In this document: positions 2,155-22,500 of the stretch, piece after piece | Position numbering within the stretch: the stretch's first letter is position 1 | How the letters are laid out: every line of letters begins with the position of its first letter | Virus record (IMG/VR): IMGVR_UViG_3300046781_000054 | Span: 28,059 to 92,058 of that record | Reading direction: 5' to 3' (one strand) | DNA from: a virus | Length of the DNA stretch: 64,000 nucleotides | Position numbers and translations under genes: made by a program | The notes under the pieces: generated by a model | Seen by the model: only the letters and a program-made list of their open reading frames with translations | The model's database searches: none | What the model was told of the DNA's origin: nothing

Positions 2155-2183
2155 ACCGTAACCCATAACGCATTGCATAGCAA
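2155..2183 (-). promoter_or_regulatory. Promoter with embedded operator (copy 1)
   Basis: On the minus strand: TTGCTA (2183-2178), a 17-base spacer, then TACGGT (2160-2155). The spacer contains AATGCGTTATGG (2174-2163), also found in the spacer of the plus-strand promoter at 15566-15594 and over the start of the gene at 15485. CATTGC-ATA-GCAATG (2171-2185) adds a perfect 6-bp inverted repeat over the -35 box. Confidence 0.7.
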
Positions 2184-2211
2184 TGGGTGCGCATGATGCG
2201 GGCATGAGAAA

Positions 2212-2242
2212 ACCCCTCACCCGGGGTCCGGGGGTGAAGGGT
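2212..2242 (-). terminator. Intrinsic terminator of the 72-aa HTH gene
   Basis: A hairpin with an ACCCTTCACCCCC arm pairing with GGGTGAGGGGT around a short loop is followed on the minus strand by TTTTCTC. It lies 28 bases after the stop of the gene at 2270-2488. Confidence 0.75.
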
Positions 2243-2269
2243 CACAGGTGATGCGGTCGAGCCGGCCGG

Positions 2270-2488
2270 TCAGTCTCCGAGCATGTGGCGGGCATGCAGC
2301 TCAAGCAGCTCGCTGTCGGAATACCAGCCCTTCACGGACGTCAGCCCTGCCTGCTTCGCCCACCGTCTCATGGTGGACTCCGGCACGTGGTACCCCGTGG
2401 GGACCAGCAGGGCGCAGAACTCCCCGATGGTGACGGAGTCCTGGCGCCCGTCGGGGGTGGCGGTCGGACTGAGTGCGGCTGTGGCCAT
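2270..2488 (-). CDS. Small HTH DNA-binding protein (72 aa)
   Basis: The protein has a winged-helix or MerR/excisionase-like layout: TIGEFCALLVPTGYHVPESTMRRWAKQAGL reads as helix-turn-helix with a recognition helix at about residues 36-47, followed by KGWYSDSELLELHARHML. Proteins of this size act as excisionases or small transcription regulators. It has its own terminator, so it forms the end of a transcript. No recombinase lies directly beside it, so excisionase is only one option. Confidence 0.75.
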   Translation of the reverse strand: MATAALSPTATPDGRQDSVTIGEFCALLVPTGYHVPESTMRRWAKQAGLTSVKGWYSDSELLELHARHMLGD

Positions 2489-2614
2489 GGTGCGGCCTCC
2501 CAGATCGACGGCGTGCAGGTTCGCAGCTGACCGACGCCGATACGGGACCGGACCTGGCTGGCCCGGTGGTGGATTCAGTTGTGGACTTGCTACCTACGAC
2601 TCGTCACACGGGCA

Positions 2615-3166
2615 TCAGGTTGCACGTGCGGCGAGTCTTTCCTGGCGCTCGATGTGCTCGTGGGCCAGGTGTGCGAGCGTCCAGGTGGATGCCCGCCCGT
2701 CGGGGGTGCGGCAGTTGTGGTTGCGGCACACCGCGCGCTGGACGGCGTCGCGCCAGTGGAGGCCGACGGTGCCGCAGCCGGGGCAGCGGTGCCGGCGGAC
2801 GACTTGGGCGTCGCCCGTCATCGTCGCGTGCTCCAGGTACTGCCGGTAGATGATCGTGTCGCGGCGCCGCTTGGCCGTGTCGTCGTCCGTGGCGGTGTTG
2901 CGGACGCACCAGTCGTAGACCGCGGCCGCGGTGTGGGGCAGCGGTTCGAGGGTGCCGGGCGATTCGGCGTGCATGTAGTCGCGGATCTCGCGGACGGACG
3001 CGTCGATGTGGGAGACCGTGTCGATGTTGAGGGGTGCGGTGTTCTCGATGCTGCGGACGGGGGCGGTGCGGCCGGTGCGGCGGCCGGCGGGGAGTTCCAC
3101 GAAGTGCTGGACGAGCTTGGTGAGTTGCGAGGCTGCTTGTGCTGCTGCGCTGTCCGTGTTCTCCAT
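2615..3166 (-). CDS. Zinc-ribbon protein with helical N terminus (183 aa)
   Basis: Start ATG at 3166 with GGGGACAAG just upstream; the frame is open further but the added part is Pro/Arg-rich shadow-like. It begins MENTDSAAAQAASQLTKLV. The C-terminal third has CPGCGTVGLHW and CRNHNC, four Cys in a CxxC/CxxxxC ribbon, with basic residues around it (KRRRDTII). Related proteins with this opening occur in Streptomyces prophages; I infer DNA or RNA binding, perhaps regulatory. No enzyme motif seen. Confidence 0.75.
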   Translation of the reverse strand: MENTDSAAAQAASQLTKLVQHFVELPAGRRTGRTAPVRSIENTAPLNIDTVSHIDASVREIRDYMHAESPGTLEPLPHTAAAVYDWCVRNTATDDDTAKRRRDTIIYRQYLEHATMTGDAQVVRRHRCPGCGTVGLHWRDAVQRAVCRNHNCRTPDGRASTWTLAHLAHEHIERQERLAARAT

Positions 3167-3381
3167 GGGCTTGTCCCCGTCCCCTGGCGGCCGCCCCCGG
3201 GTGCGCGGGGCGTCCGTACTGGGTGCGGGGCGCGCGCCGGGTGGGCCGGATTCTGTTACTCCCGGTGATTCCGGACGCCCCACTATGGCACTTGTGGGGC
3301 GGAAGTTGAACAGAATGTGGTAGATGATCAGCTCTGGGTGGCTGGTCTTCACATCTGACGTCCGGTCAAACGGTAAGAACC

Positions 3382-3397
3382 CCCGGCATATGCCGGG
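3382..3397. terminator. Perfect 16-bp palindrome CCCGGCATATGCCGGG
   Basis: It lies 7 bases after the stop of the 96-aa gene at 3404. On the minus strand it is followed by GGTTCTTACC, a weak U-rich tail. It could be a terminator for that gene or an operator; the perfect symmetry including the TATA-like centre fits either. Confidence 0.45.
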
Positions 3398-3403
3398 CGA
3401 TCT

Positions 3404-3694
3404 TCACTGGTCGGTCACCAATCCTGCCGCGCGCCGCGCCCCCTCCAGCAGTCCTGCCAGCTGTGTCTGCTGCGCCTCGTCGACGATGCCCTGCGCGCCC
3501 GCGCCGGCCGTGACCTTCGCGGCGATCCCCATGGCGACGTCGAACGCGGCCCGCGTCCGCGGGTCGGTCAGGCTCATGTGCTCCGCGTTGTAGGTGAGTT
3601 CGATCATCTCGGCGAGCGGCCGCAGGATCGCTTCGTCACCGCGGCCGGGGTCCGGGCCGGAGTCTGGGTGGTGGGGTTGTGCTGGGCTGGTCAT
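3404..3694 (-). CDS. Small helical hypothetical protein (96 aa)
   Basis: Start ATG at 3694 preceded by GGGGGAC; the frame is open to 4258 but the upstream part is Pro/Arg-rich and has no ribosome site. The protein (MTSPAQPHHPDSGPDPGRGD...) has a disordered start and then helices (LRPLAEMIELTYNAEHM; RAAFDVAMGIAAKVTAG). Function unknown. It stands alone between two non-coding stretches. Confidence 0.7.
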   Translation of the reverse strand: MTSPAQPHHPDSGPDPGRGDEAILRPLAEMIELTYNAEHMSLTDPRTRAAFDVAMGIAAKVTAGAGAQGIVDEAQQTQLAGLLEGARRAAGLVTDQ

Positions 3695-4383
3695 GTCGTG
3701 TCCCCCGCTGCGAAAGGGCCGGCTGACGCGTGGTGTGAGTGGGATGATCCGGGCGCTGGTCGGGGCGCCGGAGTCGTTCCTTCCGTCCATCGGTGGGACG
3801 GGTTCGGCTGAGGGCATGGGGCGTCTCCGCTCCTCTGGCAGGGAGTGGGAAGGGTCCTCGTCACGCCGGTGTCGCAGGTCACCGGCCCCTTTCTCGCGGG
3901 CGCGGCTGCCAGTCCACACGCGCGAGGCTGCCACTGTGGCAGGAGAGGGGCCTGGCTCGGTAGACGCATCGGCGTTTTCACACCGAATCGTTGGCCAAAG
4001 GTGGCGGCTTTCGGCCTTGGCTGCTATCAGCCGGGGTGGTGACGGTGTGTCACACGCGGAAGGGTGCGGCCCGGGTGCGGGCGGCGGGGGCGGGCATGCC
4101 CGTCCGATGACGGGGATTGTAGGCCGGGACGCCGCCACGGGGGAAGGGGTGTGCCGTGGTGCACCAGCCCGGGGTCCGGGGGCTGGTGGGGCGCCGGGCT
4201 GCGAGGCCCGTGGGGGTCCCGGCGCCCCGCACCGCGGGGCCCGCGCGGCCACCCGCACGGCCCGTCTAGGGCATCGTAGATATATGCATGTTGGAAGCCT
4301 TGGGCAACGGATTCACTCCTCTGGGTGACTCATAAACCCTGTCAATAAGCGGGTTTTCGACTGGAGTTGACCGGAAACGAAAA
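3695..4383. other. Structured non-coding region beyond the par terminator
   Basis: I see no convincing gene in these 689 bases. The region holds nested symmetries: GTGAC-N5-GTCAC (4039-4053), CACCAGCCC-N9-GGGCTGGTG (4162-4188), GGCGCCGGG...CCCGGCGCC (4190-4226). An unusually AT-rich patch for this molecule (GTAGATATATGCATG, near 4275-4289) follows. It could carry a promoter for the 96-aa gene, a structured RNA or an origin/transfer site. None of these is proved by the sequence. Confidence 0.4.
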
Positions 4384-4429
4384 GAGGGCCCCGCTCCCCC
4401 ACCGGCTGGTGGTTCAGAGCGGGGCCCTC
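4384..4429 (-). terminator. Terminator of the parAB operon
   Basis: A perfect 13-bp stem, GAGGGCCCCGCTC with GAGCGGGGCCCTC, encloses a 20-base loop that has its own small CCACC/GGTGG hairpin. On the minus strand it is followed by TTTTCG. It begins 17 bases after the parB stop. Confidence 0.85.
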
Positions 4430-4445
4430 GCGTCGGTCAGACGGC

Positions 4446-5546
4446 CTAGGAGACCGTGGTGAGGAGTTCCTTGAGTTGTTCGTCGTTGCGCTCCGCGGCC
4501 TGCTTGAACAGGTAGGAGAGCAGCGTGAAGAACTCCGGGTCGGCAACACGTTCCCGAATCAGCCGTGCCACATACCCGGGCTGATCCCATGGGACGGGCC
4601 GAGCGTTCTGCTCCGCGGTCGTCTGCTCCTCAATCTCTGGAGCAGACGACAGCTCTTGCCCCTCCGCGTCCGGGGCAGGATGCTCGGTCCGCTGCTCGGG
4701 AAGCCCCTCCCCTGCTCCGCCAGCCGCTGCGGCGCCCGCGTTCAAAACGGCGTTTTGAACAGCACCGGCCCCCGCGTCGGGTTCCGACGCAGGCGCGGGG
4801 GACTCGGTCTTCAAAACGGCGTTTTGAGAAGCTGCCTTCTTACGAGGCTTCGGCGTCTTCGCCGCCGCCTTGATCGCCTCAACCTGGGCGCGCTGCTCCT
4901 CAGGCTTCTTGGATGCCAGACCGCGGACCTGACTCGGCTTGACCGCGCCGGCCTCCAGCTCGGCCCTCACCTCGTCGTCGAGCTTGAGGAGAGCGAGCCG
5001 GTGCGAGACGTACATCTGCGTCTTGCCGATGCGTCGTCCGACCTCTTCCTGGCTGCCGTGCTTCTCCACCATCCGCTTCAGGAACTCGGCCTCCTTGATG
5101 GGGTCGATCTGCTTGCGGTGGATGTTCTCGATGATGACGGCGTCGTCGAGCTGGTCGTCTTCGCCGAGCCGGTCCTGGACGCGGATGTCGATGCGGGTCC
5201 AGCCGAGCTGGCGGGCGGCTGCCAGGCGGCGGTTGCCGGTAACGACGATCCAGTCGGCGCCCTCAACAGCCTTGGCGAGCTCGGGCTTGGACATCACGTA
5301 GCGGGCGTGGGAGACGACCGCGAGCGGTTGCAGCTGTCCGACCTCGCGCATGGTGTCCATGAGTTCGGCGAACTCAGGGTCCGCGTCGGTGTAGTCGTCG
5401 GCCAGACGGGGGTTCTCCGGGTTGCCGGTGATGGTGTGCATGAGCACGGTGGTCGGCGGTGCGACCGGCTTGTCGTCCGGTGTAGCGGTGGTTGCCTTGT
5501 CGTCCTTGCCGAGCAGGCTTGTGAAGCTCTTTTGCCTGTTGGACAT
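4446..5546 (-). CDS. parB: ParB partition protein with embedded parS-like sites
   Basis: 366 aa. An N-terminal ParB/Spo0J nuclease-fold (about 40-160) contains ENPR at 45-48 and WIVVTGNRRLAAARQLGW (GNRR type ParB signature). A central HTH (EEVGRRIGKTQMYVSHRLALLKL, about 165-190) should bind parS. A low-complexity linker (220-320) holds two QNAVL segments, which are exactly where the palindrome TTCAAAACGGCGTTTTGAA is read as codons. The C terminus (330-366) is a helical dimer region. The start overlaps the parA stop by one base (TGATG). ParB should load on parS and act with ParA in plasmid segregation. Confidence 0.93.
   Translation of the reverse strand: MSNRQKSFTSLLGKDDKATTATPDDKPVAPPTTVLMHTITGNPENPRLADDYTDADPEFAELMDTMREVGQLQPLAVVSHARYVMSKPELAKAVEGADWIVVTGNRRLAAARQLGWTRIDIRVQDRLGEDDQLDDAVIIENIHRKQIDPIKEAEFLKRMVEKHGSQEEVGRRIGKTQMYVSHRLALLKLDDEVRAELEAGAVKPSQVRGLASKKPEEQRAQVEAIKAAAKTPKPRKKAASQNAVLKTESPAPASEPDAGAGAVQNAVLNAGAAAAGGAGEGLPEQRTEHPAPDAEGQELSSAPEIEEQTTAEQNARPVPWDQPGYVARLIRERVADPEFFTLLSYLFKQAAERNDEQLKELLTTVS
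4741..4759. other. parS-like palindrome 1 (inside parB)
   Basis: TTCAAAACG-G-CGTTTTGAA, a perfect 9-bp inverted repeat with one central base, inside the coding sequence of the ParB linker. It is identical, on the opposite strand, to the copy at 6404-6422. It is far more AT-rich than the surrounding DNA. Confidence 0.8.
4810..4828. other. parS-like palindrome 2 (inside parB)
   Basis: TTCAAAACGGCGTTTTGAG, the same palindrome with one terminal mismatch, 51 bases from the first. It also encodes QNAVL in the same reading frame of the ParB linker. Confidence 0.8.
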
Positions 5547-6277
5547 CAGCGGCCCTTCCTTCCGGCGCCGATCTCCAGGGCGAGCTTGTAGAAGTCCTCG
5601 CGGGCTTCCATCGCTACTCGGTTCTTCTTGTAGCGGGTGACGACGAGACCTTCGACCGCCGCCCTCGTGTGGATCTTGTAGTGTCGGATGACGGTCTTGG
5701 CGAGGTTCCAGCCGTTGCCGAGAACGTACGCTCTGGTGTCTTCAAGGTCTGCCGTGCCGTCGCGGGGGTCCCAGTTGTTGATGACGACCCAGTACTGCTT
5801 GCCGAGGGGGCGGACGACCTGCTCGATGGTGTCGCGGGTGGGGATGAAGCCGAGCGGCTCGGGTTCGATGGGGACGATGATGTCGTCGGCGACTGTGAGC
5901 ACGGCGCGCATGGCGTCGGCGGCGGCGCTCTTGCCGAACGGGTCGCCTGCTTGCTCTTGTTCGTCCTCGGGGAGGTCCATCCACCCGGGGGTGTCGATGA
6001 ACGCGTGCTTGATCTTCTTGGACTTCTTCAGCTCGGGGAAGAAGTCGAGGTCCTTGCGTGTCTTGGTCTGCACGAACGAGAACGGCAGGTCGTCGCCTAC
6101 CTGCTCGGACCACCACGTGGCCGACCCCTGCGGGTCGCTGGATACCGCGACGACGTAGTCGGGGTCGTCGGCGGGGGACTCGCCGAGCACTTCGGCGGTG
6201 GTGGCGGATGTGTTCACGGTGAGGGTCGACTTGCCGACCCCGCCCTTGCGGTTAACGACCGCAGTGATGCGTGCCAT
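5546..6277 (-). CDS. parA: ParA-type partition ATPase
   Basis: 243 aa. Start ATG at 6277 (MARITAVVNRKGGVGKST) with GGAG upstream; the 24 extra codons upstream lack support. The deviant Walker A KGGVGKST is at residues 10-17, a SSDPQGSATWW switch region near 46, and FIDTPGW (Walker B-like) near 91. There is no N-terminal HTH, so this is a short ParA of the type Ib/Soj size class. It should form the ATP-dependent gradient that moves ParB-parS complexes. It is the penultimate gene of the replication/partition operon and is coupled to parB. Confidence 0.93.
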   Translation of the reverse strand: MARITAVVNRKGGVGKSTLTVNTSATTAEVLGESPADDPDYVVAVSSDPQGSATWWSEQVGDDLPFSFVQTKTRKDLDFFPELKKSKKIKHAFIDTPGWMDLPEDEQEQAGDPFGKSAAADAMRAVLTVADDIIVPIEPEPLGFIPTRDTIEQVVRPLGKQYWVVINNWDPRDGTADLEDTRAYVLGNGWNLAKTVIRHYKIHTRAAVEGLVVTRYKKNRVAMEAREDFYKLALEIGAGRKGR

Positions 6278-6403
6278 GGGTTGTTGCTCCGTAGGTTCCG
6301 TATGATTCCCGGCCCTTTGTGAGGCCGGTACTTCGGACCGGGACAGCATGGCACGGCAGGCAGGGGAGGGACTGGACGGGGCACGGTGCGTCGCTCATGC
6401 GGG

Positions 6404-6422
6404 TTCAAAACGCCGTTTTGAA
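6404..6422. other. parS-like palindrome 3 (upstream of parA)
   Basis: TTCAAAACGCCGTTTTGAA lies one base beyond the stop of the 57-aa gene and 127 bases before the parA start. It is the exact reverse complement of the copy at 4741. ParB binding here could also control parAB transcription. Confidence 0.8.
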
Positions 6423-6423
6423 G

Positions 6424-6597
6424 TCAGCCGTCGTCGTCTTCGCCCGCGGGGGCGAGCCGGTCCCACAGTTGCGTGAGCGTCAGGCCGCCCTCGTAGGCCG
6501 GTTCCTGGAACAGGCCCTGGTACGGGATGCGCGGCAGCTGCGGGCGCGGGCGGATGGTGGTGACGGGCCGGCGGGGTGGTGCAGCGGGTGTGGTCAT
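6424..6597 (-). CDS. Tiny protein upstream of parA (57 aa)
   Basis: ATG at 6597 with GGAG eight bases upstream encodes MTTPAAPPRRPVTTIRPRP, then PYQGLFQEPAYEGGLTLTQLWDRLAPAG and an acidic tail EDDDG. The codon pattern is coding-like and the gene sits in line between two operon members. The Pro/Arg start and acidic end suggest a small peptide that binds a partner protein. Unknown function. Confidence 0.65.
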   Translation of the reverse strand: MTTPAAPPRRPVTTIRPRPQLPRIPYQGLFQEPAYEGGLTLTQLWDRLAPAGEDDDG

Positions 6598-6612
6598 CGT
6601 CGGCTCCAGGGA

Positions 6613-6798
6613 TCAGGCGGCGAACGTGTAGGCGGGGCGCAGGGCGCGGATGTGGGTGTCGAGCCAGGCCCGTTCGGATTCCTCCTGGGCACGGTGCCAG
6701 GCTTCGCGTTCCTCGTCGGTGAGGCTGCGCGGGTCGACGTCCAGGTCCTCAAGCACGGTGGTGGCTCCGTCCGGTTGGTGCAGTGGATCGGTGATCAC
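6613..6798 (-). CDS. Small acidic protein (61 aa)
   Basis: The protein MITDPLHQPDGATTVLEDLDVDPRSLTDEEREAWHRAQEESERAWLD is mostly one charged helix preceded by an acidic flexible start. It lies between the DciA-like gene and the 57-aa gene in the replication/partition operon. No known domain. Confidence 0.7.
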   Translation of the reverse strand: MITDPLHQPDGATTVLEDLDVDPRSLTDEEREAWHRAQEESERAWLDTHIRALRPAYTFAA

Positions 6799-6836
6799 AG
6801 TGCCTGAGATTTAGGGAACTGTTCCCTCCGCTCCGC

Positions 6837-7619
6837 TCAGGCGACGTCGAAGGCGCGTCGTGCGGGAGCCGGCCCGTTCTTCTCCTCGCCGCGCTTGAAC
6901 GCGAGGGCGGCCTGGCGGGCGCGTTCGCTCTCCTTGTGGCGTTGGGCCGCCTCGTCGGGTGTCTCCAGCTGGCGGACGGTGGTGTCGCCGGGTAGACGGT
7001 GGGCGCGCAGGGCGGCGTCCTGGCGGGCGATCGCGGCGATGAGGTAGGGGTCGGTGGGTCCGTGTTCGGGCCGGTGGTCGAGGTGGGCCTGGAGGGCGTG
7101 CTGGTAGCCGGGTGAGGCGGTCGCGCGGGTCTTCGGTTCCGGCAGAACCGGTGCCGCTGCCGAGACGTCGGGCCGCTCGTCCGCTGCGGGCGTGGCGCCT
7201 GGCGGGAGGATCCGCAGAGCGCGGACCACGCTCTGCCCGGTCTTCTCCCAGATTCGGGCGAGGATCTGCCGCTGGAACATCCGTAGCTGTGTCGCGTACG
7301 CGGCGGAGAGGGGCTGCAGGTACAGGATGCCGGTGTCGTGGGTGAAGCGGGTCGCGTACACCTTGTCTGCAAGCTCGGGGGCGATCTGCGGCCACTGGTC
7401 GAGGATGCTGCCGCCTTCCTCGGGTGGTTCCCAGCCGCGTTCGTCCATCATCTGTCCGATGACTGCGGACAGGCCTTGCGGGTCGCGGCGGCCGGTGCGC
7501 TGCACGGTCTTCCGGGTGGGCTTCTTCGCCTTGGTGGTCGGCTGGGTTTTTGCGTGGGCGCGGGCGGCGGCGAGTGCGGCGCGGGCCAGGTCGGCGCCGG
7601 AGGGTGTGGGTTCGCTCAT
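6837..7619 (-). CDS. dciA: DciA-like helicase loader (DUF721)
   Basis: 260 aa. Residues 46-140 match the DUF721/DciA pattern of the Streptomyces chromosome as I know it: GRRDPQGLSAVIGQMMDERGW, then DQWPQIAPELADKVYATRF and LYLQPLSAAYATQLRMFQRQILARI. A basic, disordered N terminus (LARAALAAARAHAK) is also typical, and a 120-residue C-terminal extension is not. DciA interacts with the replicative helicase DnaB in bacteria lacking DnaC. Start ATG at 7619 overlaps the stop of the HTH replication gene by four bases, so initiator and loader are made together. I infer recruitment of host DnaB to the plasmid origin. Confidence 0.85.
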   Translation of the reverse strand: MSEPTPSGADLARAALAAARAHAKTQPTTKAKKPTRKTVQRTGRRDPQGLSAVIGQMMDERGWEPPEEGGSILDQWPQIAPELADKVYATRFTHDTGILYLQPLSAAYATQLRMFQRQILARIWEKTGQSVVRALRILPPGATPAADERPDVSAAAPVLPEPKTRATASPGYQHALQAHLDHRPEHGPTDPYLIAAIARQDAALRAHRLPGDTTVRQLETPDEAAQRHKESERARQAALAFKRGEEKNGPAPARRAFDVA

Positions 7620-8848
7620 GCAGGGCTCCCGTTGAGGAAGGCGAGGATGTCGGCCTCGGCGCCCGACTCGCTGCTGGCGGCGTCGGGGGTGTGGTTGAGG
7701 TTGTCCCAGCCTCGCGCCCGGCACGTGGCCTCGTAGGCGGCCTCTCCCTGCCGCAGCGCGGCCATGAGGTCGAGTCGGACACCGACGGGGGCAGTGAACG
7801 CGCCGGCGGCCGGGTTCTCCAGCTCAAACCGTTCGGCAGCAGCGGCCTGCAGGTCGGCGTGCTTCTGCTGGGCCTCGAGGGCGGTGGAGATGTAGGCGGC
7901 AGGGTTGCGGGGCCGCCAGTTGCCGCCGGGGTGCATTCCGTGGAGGTATTCGGCGATGCCGTACGCGTCGAGGCCGCGGTCGATGAGCGGCCGCAGCGCG
8001 AAGGCGAGTCGGCGCAGGCCCTCCGTCTGGGTCCAGTTCACCAGGGGCCTCACCTGCCGGGCGACCGTCACGTCCTTGGCGACCTGGAGGGGGCTGCGCC
8101 TCCCGCTGCTGCGGTTCTTCTTCGACGACTGGGTGGGGGACTGGCTGCTGCGCGCCGCCTGCGGGGTGTAGTTGCTCTTTTCCCCACCCTCTACCTTCAG
8201 CTTTCCCTCTTCTCTAACCAGGGTGAGGGAAGGGGTGACACGGCCCCCATCGGCACCCGAGTTATCCACAGGGGTCGTTTGGGCCGGGATCCGGGGTCGC
8301 TGGTCGACGATGATGCGGGCCTCGTAGCCCTCACCGACGACCTGGTGCCCCATCGCGTGGTCGTACACGGGCGGGGTGACCGCCCCGTACACGGTGGCGG
8401 TGCCTGCGTAGCCGCCCAGGCCGAGCGTGCGGCGGATGTTGGCGCGGGTGCCGTGCTCGACCCACACGAGGGCCCCGAGCTCGCGGAGGTAGGCGATGTG
8501 GCGCTGCAACTGGCGCAGGGACAGGCCGAGTCGGGCGGCGGTGTCGTGCTGGGCGTAGCGGACATGCCCGGTGTCGTAGTCCATGCGGTCGGCGAGGTCG
8601 TGGGCGACGCGTTGCGTGGTGGCGTTCGCGCGGGGGTGCAGGCCGGCTGCGATCAGCCATTCCACCGCGCGACGCCACCGCCGCGGGCCGCTGCGGCGCG
8701 ACTTGGTGGCGTGCACCTCCTGGCAGGCGCCGCGCACGAGAGCGACCTGACCTGCACTGTAATAGATCTTCTGTTCGAATTCGATGTTGGGGGCGTGTGT
8801 GTCGTAAGGGGGTTTGGTGCACTGGGTGTCACCCGGGCGCGGGAACAT
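7616..8848 (-). CDS. HTH replication-initiator candidate (Rep)
   Basis: 410 aa from ATG at 8848; no clear ribosome site, and the frame is open further upstream. Residues about 55-135 form an HTH region (HDTAARLGLSLRQLQRHIAYLRELGALVWVEHG) typical of Streptomyces plasmid proteins annotated as HTH or replication proteins. A Ser/Lys-rich linker (210-250) precedes a C-terminal domain with LRRLAFALRPLIDRGLDAYGIAEYLHGMHP. Its position, coupled to a DciA homologue and followed by parAB, argues for the initiator. No Rep endonuclease or primase motif is visible. The first 30 codons are AT-rich for this molecule. Confidence 0.7.
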   Translation of the reverse strand: MFPRPGDTQCTKPPYDTHAPNIEFEQKIYYSAGQVALVRGACQEVHATKSRRSGPRRWRRAVEWLIAAGLHPRANATTQRVAHDLADRMDYDTGHVRYAQHDTAARLGLSLRQLQRHIAYLRELGALVWVEHGTRANIRRTLGLGGYAGTATVYGAVTPPVYDHAMGHQVVGEGYEARIIVDQRPRIPAQTTPVDNSGADGGRVTPSLTLVREEGKLKVEGGEKSNYTPQAARSSQSPTQSSKKNRSSGRRSPLQVAKDVTVARQVRPLVNWTQTEGLRRLAFALRPLIDRGLDAYGIAEYLHGMHPGGNWRPRNPAAYISTALEAQQKHADLQAAAAERFELENPAAGAFTAPVGVRLDLMAALRQGEAAYEATCRARGWDNLNHTPDAASSESGAEADILAFLNGSPA

Positions 8849-9166
8849 TCGTGAGGAATGGGGCGTGACGGGGCGCTCAAGCTGACAACTGGGGTGCGCG
8901 TACTGCACTATGTACCTGCCTGGTTCCGATGGATCAGGGCATGAAAAGGCCCCGCTTCGGTGGTGCTGGTTCGGTGAGAACCTGAAAGATCGCTCAGCGG
9001 GTTGGCACCCGGTGGGCCTTAGCTCGTCCCTGGCAGGACGGGCCGTGATGTGAAGGCCGTGAGGCCGGACAGTGGGTGACACCACTGAACGGGCGTAAGC
9101 GGCCAGGCGGTTGAGGAAGACGCTCCCCGGCAAGGGAGCGGCAGGACCTCCCGCCGTAGATACGGG
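8849..9166 (-). promoter_or_regulatory. Structured leader upstream of rep (318 bases)
   Basis: No gene seen. It contains several short inverted repeats: GGTTC-GGTGA-GAACC near 8969, CGTCC...GGACG near 9025, GCTCCC-N6-GGGAGC near 9122, CCGTA-GA-TACGG near 9155. GGTGTCACC occurs at about 8826 (start of rep) and inverted near 9075, which could be a paired operator or initiator site. A replication-control leader or the origin itself is possible. Confidence 0.4.
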
Positions 9167-9379
9167 CTACGTCATCTGATCTCCCTCAATGGGCGAGGTC
9201 TGCCCCTGTGCCTGCTTGGCCAGGAAGTTGATGTGCTTGTCGATCGCACCCATCAGAAGGTCGATCTCCCACTGCAAGGCGGGGCTCATCCGGGTGTGGC
9301 AGCAGATGGTTGAGGCCACCGTCTCCCGCAACTCCTCGCGGGTCATCGGCACGTTGGACCCGGGGAGAAGGGCGCTCAT
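9167..9379 (-). CDS. Small hypothetical protein (70 aa)
   Basis: The protein MSALLPGSNVPMTREELRETVASTICCHTRMSPALQWEIDLLMGAIDKHINFL is helical with a CCH triplet. Its ATG overlaps the stop of the upstream J-like gene (ATGA). It is the last gene before the 318-base leader of rep. Function unknown. Confidence 0.75.
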   Translation of the reverse strand: MSALLPGSNVPMTREELRETVASTICCHTRMSPALQWEIDLLMGAIDKHINFLAKQAQGQTSPIEGDQMT

Positions 9380-9813: not shown

Positions 9814-10085
9814 GCGACGGTCGGGGTAGTGGTGACAGGGCCCTCGCTCAACGCCGAACATGTGATGTTCACGGCGGAGACTGAGGTCCCACTGTCTGAT
9901 CGCCCGGATGTCCGGGTACGCTTCGCCATAGAGCTGGCACCTTCATTCGTTCGCACGGTGTGGTGTCGGCGGGCCCCGCGTCCAGATGCTTCCAACATCA
10001 GGACTGCCGTTGAATCGGCGAGCGGGGCCTTTTGACTTGTCTGGGAGACCGGCCGACCGCACATCTGAGTAGCCGTCTGGTCCAT
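9810..10085 (-). CDS. Leaderless small gene (91 aa)
   Basis: The ATG at 10085 lies exactly where the promoter at 10091-10121 should start transcription. The protein MDQTATQMCGRPVSQTSQK... is polar, Ser/Thr/Arg-rich and has no recognised domain. Its stop overlaps the start of the J-like gene by four bases (ATGA). Support comes from the promoter register and the coupling rather than from homology. An alternative is that it is only a translated leader that feeds ribosomes to the next gene. Confidence 0.55.
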   Translation of the reverse strand: MDQTATQMCGRPVSQTSQKAPLADSTAVLMLEASGRGARRHHTVRTNEGASSMAKRTRTSGRSDSGTSVSAVNITCSALSEGPVTTTPTVA

Positions 10086-10090
10086 AGCGC

Positions 10091-10121
10091 AGTCTATCGG
10101 TTGGGGCTGACAATGTTCCCC
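10091..10121 (-). promoter_or_regulatory. GGGGAACA-class promoter of the replication/partition operon
   Basis: Minus strand: GGGGAACAT (10121-10113), 16 bases, TAGACT (10096-10091), five bases, then ATG at 10085. This is the best -10 match of the five members of this class. Confidence 0.75.
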
Positions 10122-10164
10122 GTGACTCGCGATCGTGTCGTACGTCCCGCGCGGCACCCTTGAC

Positions 10165-10593
10165 TCACCCCTCATCGTGGCCCCGCCCCTCCGACTCACC
10201 GTCAGCCGGATGCTCCGACAAGGCCGTTGCCATCGACCGGGCCACCATTCCCGCCATCGCCGAATGGCCGGCCGCCGCCAACTCCCCGCGGAGCCGCTCC
10301 AGCTGGTCCCGGTAGAAGTACGGGCGGGCCGCCAGCCTGGCCGTGTACATCCCCACAACGAACGCCCGCTCCCACACCTCCTGCACCACCACCGGATCCG
10401 CCTCCGGGAACAAATCCATCGGCAGCTTCGACGGCCGGCCCGCCGTCTCCAGCTCGGCGGCCGCGATCAGCCCCGCCAGATGCTGGGCCGTCATCACCGC
10501 CCGCCCCGACAGGCTCAGGTCCGTCCGTGACGTCTCGAACGCCGCCAGGTCCTGCTCGGCGGCCGCGGTCTCGGGAGTGTGGAACGTGGTCAC
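10165..10593 (-). CDS. Helical hypothetical protein (142 aa)
   Basis: All-helical protein (MTTFHTPETAAAEQDLAAFETSRTDLSLSG...). It contains VVVQEVWERAFVVGMYTARLAARPYFYRDQLERLRGELAAAG and ends in a charged His/Asp/Glu tail. It overlaps the Wbl gene stop by four bases and is the last gene of that operon. Common in Streptomyces phage-like elements, but I know no function for it. Confidence 0.75.
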   Translation of the reverse strand: MTTFHTPETAAAEQDLAAFETSRTDLSLSGRAVMTAQHLAGLIAAAELETAGRPSKLPMDLFPEADPVVVQEVWERAFVVGMYTARLAARPYFYRDQLERLRGELAAAGHSAMAGMVARSMATALSEHPADGESEGRGHDEG

Positions 10594-11423
10594 GCGGCAG
10601 CCTCCACAGGCGTGGTCGGAACAGACGGAGAGGGGAACACAGTCACCGAACCGCCCGGGCGGGCCTCGGCGTCGAACAGATCCAGCTCAAGCTGGCCGGC
10701 GATCGCAGCGAACTTCGACGGCTTCGGACGCACACCCCGCGTCCGCGACGGGCCGGCCGGACGCGTCGGCTCGTCCTCCCGCACCCGCGACAGCGCGGGC
10801 ACCGTGCCGTCATCCCGGCGCACCACCCACCCCGGCGCCAGCAGCCCCCGCGCGGCCGCCTTGTCGATCAGCTCGTTCCGCGTCGCGGTCTTCGACAGAC
10901 CGAGCTTGTCCAGGAGCCGGGACCGCTGCCAGTTCGTCGTCCGCAGCGTCAAACCGGTCACCCGGGCTATCACCCGCACATCCGCGTACTTCACGACCGC
11001 CCGCAGCACCTTCTGTGTCTGCTCCGTCGCGAAGTACTCATCCGGGGCCTCCCGCGGCACCTGCCTGCTCCGCGCCGCAATGACCTCCCTCGACCGGTCC
11101 AGGGCGCGCATCCCGCCGAGGATGCCCTCCCGCTCGATCAACTGCCCGTCCGCGCCCACCGCCCGGCCGACCGCCAGGCACTGCACCATCACCGGACACG
11201 ACACACAGACGTCGATGGCGGCCTCCTCGCGGGCCCGGCGCACCGCCTGCGGCTCACCTCCGTCCCCGGACTGTGCAGTCCACGCATCCACCGACAGGCC
11301 CGGATTCCCCGCCGCACGCCGCGGATCATCCACATCGGGGGCGCACCCGCGGTACCGGTAGTGCGGATGCCAGGTCAACGCCTCATACGGCGACTTCGGC
11401 AACATCGTCTTGCTCGGGCTCAC
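10590..11423 (-). CDS. Wbl (WhiB-like) protein with C-terminal HTH
   Basis: 277 aa from GTG at 11423, with AGGAAGGGGG just upstream. It carries the four Cys of a Wbl iron-sulfur cluster: C27 (RGCAPD), then CVSCPVMVQC giving C73, C76 and C82. The Wbl turn GILGGMRALDR (about 100-110) follows. A second domain (about 145-180) VIARVTGLTLRTTNWQRSRLLDKLGL reads as a LuxR-type HTH. Wbl proteins bind sigma factor HrdB/SigA and regulate transcription; phage Wbl proteins (WhiB of mycophage TM4) can block host Wbl genes and septation. Here it may direct host RNA polymerase to phage or plasmid promoters. Confidence 0.9.
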   Translation of the reverse strand: MSPSKTMLPKSPYEALTWHPHYRYRGCAPDVDDPRRAAGNPGLSVDAWTAQSGDGGEPQAVRRAREEAAIDVCVSCPVMVQCLAVGRAVGADGQLIEREGILGGMRALDRSREVIAARSRQVPREAPDEYFATEQTQKVLRAVVKYADVRVIARVTGLTLRTTNWQRSRLLDKLGLSKTATRNELIDKAAARGLLAPGWVVRRDDGTVPALSRVREDEPTRPAGPSRTRGVRPKPSKFAAIAGQLELDLFDAEARPGGSVTVFPSPSVPTTPVEAAA

Positions 11424-11665
11424 TGGTGGCCCCCTTCCTGCACAGTGGACTGGCTCGTAGACGGGACCGGCCCGCCCGCCATAGCGGCGGCACGGGCCAG
11501 CTGAAGTTCGCGTTGATGGTCGGCGTGGACAACGTGGTCGACGAGCCGGCGCCCGGCCCGCTCCGCCCTCAGGTCCTGCTCGAGCGCGCCGACACGACGC
11601 ACCAGCCAGACGACAGCCCAGCCCGCGGCGAGGACCGTGAGACTGGCACGTATTCGGTGGGACAC
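11420..11665 (-). CDS. Small single-pass membrane protein (81 aa)
   Basis: One transmembrane segment at about residues 7-24 (ASLTVLAAGWAVVWLVRRV), then a coiled-coil-like charged stretch (GALEQDLRAERAGRRLVDHVVHADHQRELQLARA). Its TGA overlaps the GTG of the Wbl gene. Topology is probably N-out, C-in. Function unknown. Confidence 0.75.
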   Translation of the reverse strand: MSHRIRASLTVLAAGWAVVWLVRRVGALEQDLRAERAGRRLVDHVVHADHQRELQLARAAAMAGGPVPSTSQSTVQEGGHQ

Positions 11666-11707
11666 GGGTCCTCACCACCTCTCTATCTGGGGAAGGGAAT
11701 TCGGGGG

Positions 11708-12037
11708 TCACTGCTGCGGCTTGGACGCCTTCAAGAACTCCTCGAAGGCGATCAGTTCCGCCTCGTGCACGACCGGCTCGCCCGCGTCAGCCGCTGCCTG
11801 CAACTGGGCGCGGTGGGCTGCCTCCCACGCGACCTCGCCCTCGAGAGCCGCCTCGTCGGCGCGCAGTCGGTCGATTGCCTGCTCCACGCTTCCCGGATAC
11901 ACATCCGTCGGGAGTACTCCGCGGGCCCGGGCACGACGCCGGCGCCACGCGGCGAACGCACCGACCAGCCACACCCCGCACAGGATGAAGACGGTGCCGA
12001 GGGCGATGAGCCAGTTGTAGAAGGTGTCTTCGTTCAC
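11708..12037 (-). CDS. Small membrane protein with cytoplasmic coiled coil (109 aa)
   Basis: Start GTG at 12037 with GAGG seven bases upstream. VNEDTFYNWLIALGTVFILCGVWLVGAFAAWRRRRAR contains one transmembrane helix followed by a strongly basic stop-transfer. The rest is a long charged helix (VEQAIDRLRADEAALEGEVAWEAAHRAQL). It lies in line with the other membrane gene before the Wbl gene; such pairs are common in actinophage early regions. Confidence 0.75.
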   Translation of the reverse strand: MNEDTFYNWLIALGTVFILCGVWLVGAFAAWRRRRARARGVLPTDVYPGSVEQAIDRLRADEAALEGEVAWEAAHRAQLQAAADAGEPVVHEAELIAFEEFLKASKPQQ

Positions 12038-12146
12038 GGCGGACCTCGTTTCAGGCAAGGGGGAATCCCCGACTGGCGAACTGGTGAGGTGAAGCGGGTC
12101 CGGTGGGGCGGACGGGCGGGGCACTCAGACGTCCCCGCCAGGGGTG

Positions 12147-13490
12147 TTACGCGGCCGAGGCCAGAGCGTCCTGCAGAAACGGCACCCCGGTGGCGGCGGC
12201 CACGACGTGCGCGGCCAGGAGGGGCGGAACAGCGTTACCGATCTGCTCGTACGCCTTGGTCTTCGTGCCCTGCCACGGATAGTCCTCGGGGAAGGACTGG
12301 AGGATCGACCCCTCCGGGACGGTCAACATGCGGCTCTTGTCGCCGTCCGTGAACACGTACTCGTTACGAGCGTGCCCGAACGCCAAGGTTGCGGCCGGCT
12401 CGGACATCGTGCGTACCGTGGCGTTGGCGCGGGCGTTGTGCTTGAGAACCCACTGCCCACCGGATTTGCTGGTAAGTGCGGGTGCGGGTGCGGTGTGCGG
12501 GTCAATCGTCTGCCGCGAACCGTCAGGCTGCTGATTCCGATTCGTGTGCAACGTCCACGACCGGGCCCTCGCCGTCAAAGCCTGCGACGGCTCATCCACC
12601 GGGAACTCGTTGCCGCCCTGCGTCTTGCGCTCACCGCGAGTGTTCACGATGAGGCTCGGGACCAGGCCGAGCGCGTCGGCCATCGTCACGTACTGCGGAC
12701 GAGCCTCACCGAACAGATCCTCGGCCTCGATCTCCTTGCTGTGCGTCGGCGCCGGCGGGCCCATGGGACGCACGGCCGAAGCCAGGAGCACCGCACGCCT
12801 ACGGGTCTGCGGCACTCCGTAGTCCGCCGCGTTCAAGACGCCCGACCACACGAACCAGCCCAGCCTGCGCAGCTCCTCGCCGTACACCTTCCACAGCGGC
12901 AGCACACCCGGCACCTGCTCGAACGCCGCCCACTCCAACGGGATCCCGGCGGACGTGTCGCCGGTGGTCAGCTCCCACAGGTAACGAGCCGGCTCCAGCA
13001 CCAGCACCGTCACGAACGCGTCCTCCCGCGCCGCCGCCTCCACCTGGGCGACCGTCCAAGGCCGCTTGCCCTTCGCTACACGCTCGGCGTTGTCCGCCTC
13101 CTGCTGCGCCAACGCGACCGGGAAGATCCGCTCCCGCAACTCCTCGCGGCAGTCGTCGCCGCGCAGCATCCGCTGGATCCCGTCGGCGAGCAGGCCCATG
13201 ACCCGCATGCCGAACTGCTTGCCGGCCGTGGAGAACTTCGTGCACGGCGGCGAGAACAGCAGTCCCCACACCTGGCCCACGAGCGGCGTCAGGACGAACG
13301 AGGAGACGTCCACCCGGACCGTCGTGTGCCCGGCAGCCCTACGCGTCTCACAGGCCGCCGCATCCCACTCCAGACCCACATCCGTCAGGCCCAGCCAGCG
13401 GCGTATGCCTTCCGACCAGCCGCCCGGGCCAGCGCACCCGTCGAGGATGAGGCCCTTCTGCTGCGGCGCCCACCCGGCGAACACGGCCAT
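12147..13490 (-). CDS. DNA (cytosine-5) methyltransferase
   Basis: 447 aa. SAM-binding motif I is DGCAGPGGWSEG (17-28). Catalytic motif IV is SPPCTKFSTAGK with Cys83, followed by a long target-recognition region. QTRRRAVLLAS (about motif VIII) and AYEQIGNAVPP (motif X) close the fold. The order I-IV-VIII-TRD-X is that of C5 enzymes. No restriction partner is adjacent, so it looks orphan, which would fit protection from host restriction or an epigenetic role. The start overlaps the upstream Rad52-like gene by one base (TGATG). Confidence 0.93.
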   Translation of the reverse strand: MAVFAGWAPQQKGLILDGCAGPGGWSEGIRRWLGLTDVGLEWDAAACETRRAAGHTTVRVDVSSFVLTPLVGQVWGLLFSPPCTKFSTAGKQFGMRVMGLLADGIQRMLRGDDCREELRERIFPVALAQQEADNAERVAKGKRPWTVAQVEAAAREDAFVTVLVLEPARYLWELTTGDTSAGIPLEWAAFEQVPGVLPLWKVYGEELRRLGWFVWSGVLNAADYGVPQTRRRAVLLASAVRPMGPPAPTHSKEIEAEDLFGEARPQYVTMADALGLVPSLIVNTRGERKTQGGNEFPVDEPSQALTARARSWTLHTNRNQQPDGSRQTIDPHTAPAPALTSKSGGQWVLKHNARANATVRTMSEPAATLAFGHARNEYVFTDGDKSRMLTVPEGSILQSFPEDYPWQGTKTKAYEQIGNAVPPLLAAHVVAAATGVPFLQDALASAA

Positions 13491-14452
13491 CAGGCGGCGC
13501 TCCCCTCGGGTGTCTTGGTGGGCTGCAGTTCGGTGATCCGGGCCTCGAGCAGTGCGTCGAACGTGGTCCAGTTGCTCTCGGGCGGCGGACCCTGCACGCT
13601 CCGTTCGGACACCGCGTTCTTCTTGCCGTCCAAGCGGATCTGCAGCAGCGCCGTCGGGTTGTCCCAGCAGTTCCGGTACTGCGCGATCAGGCGCGCCAGA
13701 GGATCCTCGTCGGGCGCCGAAGTCGGCGGAGCCTGGTGAGCGTGCTCGCGGGCCTGCTCCGGCTCCGTACGGGCCGGTGCCGACTGGCCGCCCTGTTCCG
13801 CTGCCTCTCCGCCTCCGGACTCCAGGATCTCCAGGTCGGATGACGTCCACAGATCCAGGGCCATCCCGAAGCGCATCCCCGCGTTACGGATCGCATCGCC
13901 GATGATCTCCTTCACGGCGTTCGCGCCGTCCTTACCGGTCGCGTCGCCGTACCCGATCCGCGTCATCCCGCACACCGTCATCCGGATCCACAGCCCGCGG
14001 TTCCCGTCGTACTGGGGAAGCCCGCTGCCATCCAACGCCAGCGGCAGCCAGTCCCAGAACGGATCCACGTTCAGCAGCCGGTTCGTGGCCTCGGCGTGCC
14101 CGATGTACTTCAGGCAGATGTGCGCCTCGGTGATTTTCTGGTTGTTGCAGCGCTGGCAGCGGATCTCGTTGTGGTTCTGGCACACCTTGGGCCAGCCCTG
14201 TGTCTGGCTGCACTTCTTGCACCAGGGCTGCGGCCGGTACCGCACTTCGCTGGTCGGGAACGGCTCCCGCAGCCGGTGCAGGGCCTCCATCTGCTCGGCC
14301 CGCGTGTAGCCGTACGTGCCGGAAGCGTTGGCCTTCTGCTCCTCCAGCCGCTCCAGACGGGCGACGAGGGCTTCCAGATCCGGGTTCGGGGTGTGCGAGG
14401 TCAGACCCTCCGCGATGCTGCTCTGTGCGGGGGCCTCAACGGCTTGCGCCAT
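13490..14452 (-). CDS. Rad52-like single-strand annealing protein with Zn motif
   Basis: 320 aa. The N-terminal part has six Cys (C78, C81, C91, C99, C102, C113) in pairs (CKKC, CQRC) that could bind zinc. The core 116-202 (YIGHAEATNRLLNVDPFWDWLPL ... IRMTVCGMTRIGYGD ... GDAIRNAGMRFGMALDLW) follows the pattern of phage Rad52-family annealing proteins. The C-terminal 120 residues are a disordered, acidic tail and a last helix, as in proteins that recruit SSB. It probably anneals complementary ssDNA in recombination or circularisation. Start ATG at 14452 has AGGAGAA upstream. Confidence 0.85.
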   Translation of the reverse strand: MAQAVEAPAQSSIAEGLTSHTPNPDLEALVARLERLEEQKANASGTYGYTRAEQMEALHRLREPFPTSEVRYRPQPWCKKCSQTQGWPKVCQNHNEIRCQRCNNQKITEAHICLKYIGHAEATNRLLNVDPFWDWLPLALDGSGLPQYDGNRGLWIRMTVCGMTRIGYGDATGKDGANAVKEIIGDAIRNAGMRFGMALDLWTSSDLEILESGGGEAAEQGGQSAPARTEPEQAREHAHQAPPTSAPDEDPLARLIAQYRNCWDNPTALLQIRLDGKKNAVSERSVQGPPPESNWTTFDALLEARITELQPTKTPEGSAA

Positions 14453-14525
14453 GAGGGTTTCTCCTATGGGGTTATGCAGGGTGCGGGGCGGCCCACCAAT
14501 CCGGGGGCCGGCATCCCGCCCCCGA

Positions 14526-15485
14526 TCAGTCGGTTCCGGCCGTCAGGCCGTACTCCTCGTCAAACAGCTCTTCCAAGCCCAACTCGTTCGCGAGCCAGCC
14601 CGTACCGATCGTCTGCGGCGACACCCGGTACTTCAGCGTCTGCTGCAACTCGGCCGCCTTCACCCGCACCGACGCGAACAGTTCCGCATCCACATACGGG
14701 CTCAACAGCTTCCGCTCGTACGTCGACCCGGGCGCTGCCTTCGGCACCGGCCACGGCTCCCACTCACCGGCGAGAACCTTCCGCAGACCCTCCTCAACGA
14801 TCCGCCGCAACTCCGAGTCCGTGTTGTCCAGCCCCGCCAGAATCGCAGCATGCAACTGCGGCGGCACCGGCATGTTCATCAGAGCCAGATCACTCTTCGG
14901 CACCTCGTAGGCGACACCGAACTCCTCGCACAGCAGCGCCGTCGCCATCTTCGGCACCGTCGCCTTCGCCTCGTACCCCAGCCGCCGGCCGATCTCCGCG
15001 ACCTGATCCCGCATCCGAGCCAGCAGCTCCATGTCGACGGGCACGTTCAGGTTCACGCGTTCCACGGCGGAATTGCGGGGGCTGCGCGGAATCTCGACCG
15101 GCTCGGCCTCACCGTCCAGGACAGCCCTGAACCGGTCGTTGAGGGCCTTGCCCAGCAACGCGGACACGCTCTTGCCCGGCTGCTTGGCCGCGCTCTGCAG
15201 AGCTGCACGCAGCGGCTCCGGCATCCCGATCGCCAGGTTCTGCGTCGTGTCCTCACTCAGATCGCCGGCGCGCTCGTCGTGCTGCAGCATCCGGAACCCG
15301 AACGGGGAACGCAGCTCCTCCAGCGTCGCGGCAACCTCGGGCAGTTGCCCCTCGACGGCGTCAGCGGCCAGCTTCAGGTGCTCGCGGACGGTCTCAACAC
15401 TCTTGCTGCGGCGGGGCACGGGGCGGGTCCTCTCGGCGGAGCGCCCGGTGCGGCGGTGCGGCGGGCGCGTGGGGGTATTGGCCAC
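14526..15485 (-). CDS. Repressor-like protein built of repeated RHH-like units
   Basis: 319 aa from GTG at 15485 (MANTPTRPPHRRTG), which has GGAGG eight bases upstream; an in-frame ATG at 15500 overlaps the operator. After a basic N terminus there are about four similar units, each a short strand then two helices: NLAIGMPEPLRAALQSAAKQ, VNLNVPVDMELLARMRDQVA, ALMNMPVPPQLHAAILAGLD and KLLSPYVDAELFASVRVKAA. This is the look of ribbon-helix-helix units (MetJ/Arc fold) fused in tandem. CCATAACGCATTG overlaps its start and recurs in two promoters, so I infer autoregulation and control of the divergent WYL gene. Confidence 0.75.
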   Translation of the reverse strand: MANTPTRPPHRRTGRSAERTRPVPRRSKSVETVREHLKLAADAVEGQLPEVAATLEELRSPFGFRMLQHDERAGDLSEDTTQNLAIGMPEPLRAALQSAAKQPGKSVSALLGKALNDRFRAVLDGEAEPVEIPRSPRNSAVERVNLNVPVDMELLARMRDQVAEIGRRLGYEAKATVPKMATALLCEEFGVAYEVPKSDLALMNMPVPPQLHAAILAGLDNTDSELRRIVEEGLRKVLAGEWEPWPVPKAAPGSTYERKLLSPYVDAELFASVRVKAAELQQTLKYRVSPQTIGTGWLANELGLEELFDEEYGLTAGTD

Positions 15486-15496
15486 GCCATCATCCT

Positions 15497-15509
15497 CCAT
15501 AACGCATTG
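15497..15509. promoter_or_regulatory. Operator copy over the repressor start
   Basis: CCATAACGCATTG, identical over 13 bases to 2163-2175, lies 12 bases upstream of the repressor GTG and overlaps the alternative ATG. No -35 box pairs with it here, so binding would act as a roadblock or mask the ribosome site. Confidence 0.7.
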
Positions 15510-15565
15510 GTGGACCAGAGGCGGCTGGTGCCGTCCCGGTGGTCACGACGATACGCACAAACCCC

Positions 15566-15594
15566 TTGCTTGTCCATGCGTTATGGATTACGTT
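15566..15594 (+). promoter_or_regulatory. Promoter of the WYL gene with embedded operator
   Basis: TTGCTT (15566-15571), 17-base spacer, TACGTT (15589-15594). The spacer contains CATGCGTTATGG, matching the spacer of the minus-strand promoter at 2155-2183 base for base over ATGCGTTATGG. A bound repressor would block polymerase. Confidence 0.7.
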
Positions 15595-22464: not shown

Positions 22465-22500
22465 CCGCTCCACCCGAGGGAGCACCCCGCGGAAATGACT

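What the first reader, a model, noticed from the sequence alone, without database searches (positions are those of the whole stretch)
2155..15594. Matched promoter pair with an operator in the spacer, plus a third copy at the repressor start
Minus 2183-2155: TTGCTA-N17-TACGGT. Plus 15566-15594: TTGCTT-N17-TACGTT. Both spacers carry ATGCGTTATGG at the same place. The same word inverted (CCATAACGCATTG, 15497-15509) overlaps the start of the gene at 14526-15485. The pair links two distant genes (1725 and 15629) and the repeat-RHH protein in one likely circuit.
Basis: partly seen in the sequence, partly recalled or inferred. Interest (0 to 1): 0.75.

Follow-up and report, generated by a model that had tools for sequence, protein, structure and literature searches.

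The report
Dispersed operators of a phage-plasmid repressor
A Streptomyces phage that lives as a plasmid carries the same DNA switch at five places in its genome, and its relatives carry matching sets, most likely all read by one unusual repeat-built DNA-binding protein that keeps the phage's early genes quiet; this fits a known kind of phage control but with a regulator family that has no name yet.

Summary
The window is part of a 92-kb record related to the Streptomyces phage-plasmid pZL12. The word occurs three times exactly (0.005 expected), and twice more outside the window. It is the strong half of a longer operator: a TTGC-N3/4-GCAA palindrome whose left arm is the -35 box, with the -10 box 17-18 nt on. 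Across 26 related phage-plasmids I found 113 promoter-embedded sites (1-7 in shuffled genomes). Sites recur at the same places: the divergent WYL/RHH region, upstream of the 1725-2087 gene, just past SSB, and one or two opposite-strand promoters. Outer letters differ between genomes but agree among unlinked sites within a genome (2.7 v 5.4 mismatches, 0/2000 permutations), so a phage-encoded trans-acting protein most likely reads them. The best candidate is the 14526-15485 protein: present in all 26, next to two sites, predicted as four tandem ribbon-helix-helix units, and the only sense gene of 41 families that separates two operator classes in nine recombined relatives. Repression and binding are inferred. 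A WhiB-type protein is the main rival. This is a new variant of a known kind (dispersed-operator repressor regulon).

The parts
2163..2185 (-). Operator at site A: CATTGC-TAT-GCAATGCGTTATGG
   Evidence: Sequence; orthologous operator 0-185 nt from the same gene in every relative where site A was detected
2155..2183 (-). Promoter of site A: -35 TTGCTA (2183-2178), N17, -10 TACGGT (2160-2155)
   Evidence: gap-3 palindromes always have a 17-nt spacer in the distal set (40 of 40)
1725..2087 (-). First gene behind site A, 120 aa, unknown function; found in all 26 genomes
15565..15586 (+). Operator O1 between divergent promoters: CTTGC-TTGTC-CATGCGTTATGG (degenerate left half)
   Evidence: in relatives a clear TTGC-N3/4-GCAA palindrome here
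15566..15594 (+). Rightward promoter to the WYL gene: TTGCTT-N17-TACGTT
15548..15576 (-). Leftward promoter to the RHH gene: TGGACA-N17-TATCGT
   Evidence: in about a dozen relatives both TTGC arms of O1 serve as -35 boxes
15497..15509 (-). Third site O2 (CAATGCGTTATGG), touching the Shine-Dalgarno GGAGG (15498-15494) of the RHH gene
   Evidence: half-site conserved at the RHH ribosome-binding site in relatives
14526..15485 (-). Tandem RHH protein, 319 aa (GTG start); inferred regulator
15117..15245 (-). RHH unit 1 (residues 81-123, strand NLAIGM)
   Evidence: AlphaFold model, pLDDT about 86-96
14919..15059 (-). RHH unit 2 (residues 143-189, strand VNLNVP)
   Evidence: units 1-2 match F TraY, Z 8.7
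14772..14888 (-). RHH unit 3 (residues 200-238)
14583..14711 (-). RHH unit 4 (residues 259-301)
15629..16054 (+). WYL-domain protein, 141 aa, gene behind the rightward O1 promoter
   Evidence: PF13280 E 5.8e-07; no relative found in 5 of 26 genomes
13490..14452 (-). Gene next behind the RHH gene; orthologues annotated as ERF or Rad52-type annealing proteins
   Evidence: Position and order conserved in relatives; own match to Rad52 only weak
10590..11711 (-). WhiB-type protein, conserved in 26 of 26 genomes; rival candidate for the trans-acting factor
   Evidence: PF02467 E 4.3e-05; Mantel r 0.45 but ANOSIM R 0.28

Best explanation
The sites are operators of one phage-encoded master regulator of a pZL12-type Streptomyces phage-plasmid. 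The regulator is most likely the tandem ribbon-helix-helix protein of 14526-15485. It binds the TTGC-N3/4-GCAA palindrome and its outer flanks. Because the left arm is the -35 box and the rest fills the -35/-10 spacer, bound protein should keep RNA polymerase off. It would thereby repress its own gene and the recombination genes behind it (annealing protein, methyltransferase), the divergent WYL gene, and the transcription units at site A (gene 1725-2087), past SSB, and on the opposite strand. The extra site at its own ribosome-binding site would tighten autoregulation. Shown here: the sites, their promoter frame, their conserved positions, their concerted divergence, the conserved RHH gene, and its association with one operator class. 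Inferred: that the RHH protein is the binder, that binding represses, and that this keeps the prophage-plasmid state.
For: Sites: 113 in 26 genomes v 1-7 in eight Markov nulls; core palindrome with -10: 62 v 0-1 for eleven permuted palindromes. Spacing: gap 3 gives spacer 17 (40 of 40), gap 4 gives 18 (33 of 38). Positions: site A 0-185 nt from the same gene, site B 63-89 nt past SSB. Concerted change: 2.68 mismatches between loci within a genome v 5.37 for the same locus between genomes, 0/2000 permutations. RHH in 26/26 genomes, WYL 21/26. In nine recombined relatives RHH is the only sense gene of 41 families that separates ACCA/TTGT from GCCA/TTGC distal operators (ANOSIM R 1.0; WhiB 0.28, WYL -0.04); those RHHs carry NLNVT instead of NLNVR. 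Four RHH units predicted; units 1-2 match TraY and single-chain Arc. A search of IMG/VR for the operator alone gave one contig, which carries the RHH gene about 14 kb away with a dual-promoter O1.
Against: No binding or expression data. In a whole-protein Mantel test the WhiB protein correlates better with operators (r 0.45 v 0.34; partial 0.27 v 0.22), and column-level covariation does not single out RHH. CP108377 has an RHH close to CP109172/CP058980 but distal operators like ZL12/CP109524. CP107756 has a T-type strand with a G-type core, so strand letters do not fully predict operator letters. The NLNVT/ACCA link rests largely on one clade. No Pfam or PHROGs family recognises the protein at cut-off.
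Confidence: 0.66

Rival explanations
1. The same operators are read by the conserved WhiB-type protein (10590-11711), which would bind next to the -35 box and control the early promoters; the RHH protein does something else, for example in segregation or replication.
For: Highest whole-protein correlation with operator distance (r 0.448, partial 0.268) and many covarying columns; present in 26 of 26 genomes; in CP108377 WhiB, not RHH, follows the distal operators.
Against: In nine recombined relatives WhiB does not separate the two operator classes (R 0.28, between-class minimum 0.13). Its gene is not next to any detected site. A palindrome over the -35 box plus a site on a ribosome-binding site suits a repressor better than a WhiB-type activator (inference).
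Confidence: 0.14
2. The RHH protein binds the sites but acts as an activator or as a switch that is positive at some promoters.
For: Constant distance of the right half-site from the -10 box; -35 boxes (TTGCNN) are only partial matches to TTGACA.
Against: The operator covers -35 and spacer, which is typical for repression; the site at the RHH ribosome-binding site has no promoter around it.
Confidence: 0.09
3. A host regulator or a special host sigma factor reads the sites; the phage only carries host-type promoters.
For: The core TTGC/GCAA is shared by most genomes.
Against: Outer letters, and in one class the core, change from phage to phage in concert at unlinked sites, although all named hosts are Streptomyces.
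Confidence: 0.04
4. The sites are mainly replication or partition sites (iterons, parS) of the plasmid state.
For: Dispersed palindromes on a plasmid; RHH proteins can act in segregation (own knowledge: omega of pSM19035, ParG).
Against: Distal sites have a -10 box at fixed spacing and lie at conserved gene boundaries; ParB does not covary (r 0.05).
Confidence: 0.04
5. Chance: a recurring word without function.
For: None found.
Against: 0.005 expected v 3 in the window; 113 v 1-7 in nulls; fixed positions.
Confidence: 0.003

Closest known systems
Cluster A mycobacteriophage repressor/stoperator system (L5, Bxb1; PMC6550527, PMC9283540)
   Same: One phage repressor, many dispersed sites in an actinobacterial temperate phage; site motif and repressor both differ between phages.
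   Different: Those sites are asymmetric, as many as about 30 per genome, many acting on elongation, and the repressor has an HTH domain. Here there are about 4-7 sites, almost all in promoters with the arm as -35 box, palindromic, and the candidate is a tandem RHH protein.
Phage P1 C1 repressor and its dispersed operators (own knowledge, not tested)
   Same: A phage-plasmid whose repressor controls operators spread over the genome.
   Different: C1 is unrelated as far as I know; not compared here.
P22 Arc/Mnt and other single RHH repressors
   Same: RHH fold; repressor overlapping a promoter. Units 1-2 of the model align to single-chain Arc 1u9p (Z 6.3, rmsd 3.1, 82 residues).
   Different: Arc is one RHH unit per chain acting at one promoter region (own knowledge); here two or four units in a chain and a genome-wide set of sites.
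F plasmid TraY (tandem RHH, relaxosome entries 9f0x, 9f10)
   Same: Two RHH units in one chain; best fold match (Z 8.7, rmsd 3.5, 98 residues).
   Different: TraY acts at oriT; these elements are phage-plasmids typed non-mobilizable.
Plasmid-phage pZL12 (phage ZL12, NC_013420) and pSLE1
   Same: Same gene order, RHH gp030, and the same operator family.
   Different: No repressor or operator description found; ZL12 gp030 is annotated as hypothetical, the pSLE1 paper does not contain the word repressor; the pZL12 paper itself was not held.
Phage phiC31
   Same: Streptomyces temperate phage with dispersed palindromes.
   Different: Its dominant dispersed palindrome is TACTCACGTGAGTA; its TTGC-GCAA matches lack the promoter frame; its repressor has no relative in these genomes (best E 0.63).

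Membership tests
Ribbon-helix-helix (MetJ/Arc) superfamily | Strand-helix-helix units | tested here: met
   Four such units in the model, E81-89 H90-100 H107-123 and three more, pLDDT mostly 85-97
Ribbon-helix-helix (MetJ/Arc) superfamily | Fold match to solved RHH proteins | tested here: met
   TraY Z 8.7, single-chain Arc Z 6.3; top rows stand above unrelated ones but Z is moderate
Ribbon-helix-helix (MetJ/Arc) superfamily | Match to a curated RHH family model | tested here: inconclusive
   Only sub-threshold Pfam hits: Antitox_RHH E 0.14, Arc E 0.028 in a relative
Ribbon-helix-helix (MetJ/Arc) superfamily | Sequence-specific DNA binding through the strand pair | not testable with these tools
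   Needs EMSA or footprint
pZL12-type Streptomyces phage-plasmids | Gene order and size (85-102 kb, tail/terminase block, ParAB, SSB, WYL/RHH/annealing protein) | tested here: met
   Best hits and synteny with ZL12 and plasmids; 92,058-bp record
Dispersed-operator phage repressor regulon | Several copies of one operator in distant promoters of one phage genome | tested here: met
   Five copies in this record, four in promoter frame; 78 distal sites in 23 genomes
Dispersed-operator phage repressor regulon | Site motif changes in step with the repressor | tested here: inconclusive
   Clear in one nine-genome set; overall correlation significant but not the highest
Dispersed-operator phage repressor regulon | Repressor confers superinfection immunity and holds lytic genes off | not testable with these tools
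   Needs lysogens and expression data
phiC31 operator/repressor system | Shared operator or repressor homology | tested here: not met
   Different dominant palindrome, no repressor relative by blastp
WYL transcription factor (DNA-binding) as the binder | Present wherever the sites are | tested here: not met
   No WYL relative found in 5 of 26 genomes that keep the operator region

The most novel reading that the evidence does not exclude
A previously unnamed family of tandem RHH proteins (two or four RHH units in a chain) is the master immunity repressor of the pZL12-type phage-plasmids. Its operators at about five early promoters diverge in concert with it, splitting these elements into operator classes that should behave as immunity groups, and the single-chain arrangement lets it read long operators with unequal halves.
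Probability: 0.45. Interest if true: 0.75.

Novelty: new variant of a known kind. Interest (0 to 1): 0.62.

Why it matters
pZL12-type phage-plasmids are common in Streptomyces (35 PLSDB records carry the RHH gene in one search), yet I found no published description of how they keep lytic genes off. This gives a concrete candidate repressor, its operators and its target promoters, all testable in standard Streptomyces hosts. The natural protein/operator pairs of about 27 elements are a ready data set for how RHH proteins change DNA specificity and for predicting which of these elements exclude each other.

Tried and rejected
WYL protein as binder: rejected, no relative in 5 of 26 and no covariation. 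ParB/parS explanation: ParB r 0.05. phiC31-type repressor: no homology and a different palindrome. SpdA/sps of Streptomyces plasmids: sps is CGTCACGTGACG, a different motif (PMC4170104). Asymmetric operator caused by the four-unit protein: not supported, because ZL12 has four units and largely symmetric sites. Column-level covariation in single proteins did not separate RHH from linked backbone genes. Alignment A1 was too diverse for collection scans, and the window protein alone found no viral relatives. A search for the exact own-type operator in IMG/VR found no other record. Two antisense ORFs also reached R 1.0 and were set aside, since they lie inside the RHH gene and inside the replication gene, whose sense frame scores only 0.59.
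Full report
WHAT WAS CHECKED. An order-1 model of the window expects 0.005 exact copies. The window is bases 28059-92058 of a 92,058-bp IMG/VR virus record, G000. In the record outside the window there are two further copies, at 9246 (+) and 24143 (-, one mismatch), both again between a -35-like and a -10-like box.

WHAT THE ELEMENT IS. The relatives of the 319-aa protein lie on Streptomyces plasmids of 85-102 kb (nearly all circular) and on phage ZL12, whose record is the plasmid-phage pZL12. Gene order agrees: terminase and tail block, ParA/ParB, a replication gene with a weak match to O-like initiators (phrog_345), a WhiB-type gene, a methyltransferase, an annealing protein (ERF/Rad52), the RHH gene, and a divergent small gene that is usually a WYL protein. 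The window is therefore from a pZL12-type phage-plasmid.

THE FULL OPERATOR. In relatives the divergent WYL/RHH region holds a long palindrome with core TTGC-N3/4-GCAA and genome-specific outer letters, for example CCATAACCTATTGCATGCGCAATGGGTTATGG in CP046906. The left arm TTGCNN acts as the -35 box and a TANNNT -10 box follows 17-18 nt later. Over 26 genomes, 62 such core palindromes have a -10 box in the 16-19 window, against 0-1 for each of eleven palindromes made from the same four letters. A wider pattern gives 113 sites against 1-7 in eight Markov-shuffled sets. Among 78 distal sites, gap 3 always goes with spacer 17 (40), and gap 4 mostly with 18 (33 of 38), so the right half-site stays 16 nt from the -10 box. 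In the window, site A (2163-2185) is CATTGC-TAT-GCAATGCGTTATGG. O1 (15565-15586) has a weaker left half.

ONE SITE FOR TWO PROMOTERS. In about a dozen relatives both TTGC arms of O1 are -35 boxes of divergent promoters, for example CP108822 14278+ and 14288-. In the window the leftward promoter is TGGACA-N17-TATCGT at 15576-15548. The third copy, O2, touches the Shine-Dalgarno sequence of the RHH gene; a half-site GCAAT stands at the same place in most relatives.

FIXED POSITIONS. Distal sites were found in 23 of 26 genomes by pattern, and in pCQ4 and pCQ3 by similarity to their own O1. Site A lies 0-185 nt from the 5' end of the 1725-2087 orthologue and site B 63-89 nt past the end of SSB wherever site and gene were both detected; one or two more lie on the opposite strand about 32-43 kb away. 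In this record A is 30221, B is 24143, and the opposite-strand site is 9246.

CONCERTED CHANGE. Outer half-sites differ on average by 2.68 of 11 letters between different loci of one genome, but by 5.37 between genomes at the same locus; no permutation in 2000 came as low (20 genomes). Unlinked promoters thus change together, which calls for a trans-acting reader that differs from phage to phage. A prospective check agrees: IMG/VR was searched for an operator-plus-promoter pattern alone. One contig came out (L168). It has the site upstream of a 1725-2087 orthologue, and the RHH gene about 14 kb away behind a dual-promoter O1.

WHICH PROTEIN READS IT. RHH has a relative in 26 of 26 genomes, WYL in 21; WhiB and the replication protein are also universal. 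A Mantel test of distal-operator distance against protein distance gives WhiB 0.45, RHH 0.34, WYL 0.16, ParB 0.05; partial values given the genome mean are 0.27, 0.22, -0.09 and -0.05. This leaves RHH and WhiB. A sharper test uses nine close, recombined genomes whose distal operators fall into two classes, ACCA with mostly TTGT and GCCA with TTGC. Of 41 protein families only one sense gene, RHH, keeps the classes fully apart (R 1.0); WhiB has 0.28 and WYL -0.04. The strand of RHH unit 2 reads NLNVR in most genomes and NLNVT in the ACCA class. Limits: this class is one clade, CP107756 has T with a G-type core, and CP108377 has an RHH from another branch while keeping ZL12-like distal operators.

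THE PROTEIN. AlphaFold on an alignment of nine sequences gives four strand-helix-helix units at pLDDT mostly 85-97, with a disordered N-terminus. Units 1-2 align to F TraY (Z 8.7) and single-chain Arc (Z 6.3). Pfam and PHROGs have no family above cut-off. The window protein, ZL12 and the longer relatives (255-297 aa) have a duplicated pair; most relatives have one pair.

HOW IT LIKELY WORKS. Shown: sites, promoter frame, conserved positions, concerted change, the conserved RHH gene, and its association with an operator class. Inferred: the RHH protein binds; binding over the -35 box and spacer represses; the targets are its own operon with the annealing and methyltransferase genes, the WYL gene and the units at A, B and the opposite-strand site; O2 adds control at the messenger start; the sum keeps the plasmid-prophage state. 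I put the whole at 0.66.

KNOWN OR NEW. The nearest functional parallel is the repressor/stoperator system of Cluster A mycobacteriophages, where motif and repressor both diverge between phages (PMC6550527) and one repressor reads an asymmetric site (PMC9283540). P1 C1 is a phage-plasmid parallel from my own knowledge. phiC31 is different. I found no published repressor for pZL12-type elements in the held library; the original pZL12 paper was not held, so a description there cannot be excluded.

Noticed in passing
CP046906 86628-87043 (L043) and CP108353 44637 (L036): A different palindrome, ATATTGCGACGCAATAT, three times about 1.2-1.6 kb before the ParB gene of CP046906 and once close to ParB in CP108353; looks like a ParB centromere.
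   Followed up: partly
window 14526-15485; ZL12 gp030; L044-L063: The RHH family exists with one pair of RHH units (about 155-180 aa) or with a duplicated pair (255-319 aa), in mixed order on the tree.
   Followed up: partly
N-terminus of the RHH family (e.g. L163, L166): Conserved basic, proline-rich arm RRPPRGPRPVP that resembles an AT-hook; the N-terminus is predicted disordered.
   Followed up: no
CP108377 (L060) O1: The two halves of O1 look like two different sources (left half and RHH like CP109172, right half and WYL side like ZL12), as if recombination broke inside the operator core.
   Followed up: partly
downstream of the -10 box at sites A and B in several relatives (e.g. CP046906 234 and 7052): A shared leader word GCCGACAAC follows these promoters, in genomes with different operators.
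   Followed up: no
window 2200-2245: A GC-rich hairpin-like stretch after gcatgagaaaa stands just upstream of site A; similar stretches precede sites A and B in relatives, so the promoters seem to start new units after a terminator.
   Followed up: no
G000 24770-26005 (L007 9770-11005): A second cysteine-rich, WhiB-looking protein with possible HTH segments besides the one at window 10590-11711 (by eye).
   Followed up: no
G000 22469-23305 (L007 7469-8305): A phosphoadenosine-phosphosulfate-reductase-like gene (phrog_424, E 5e-35) in the unit behind site B.
   Followed up: no
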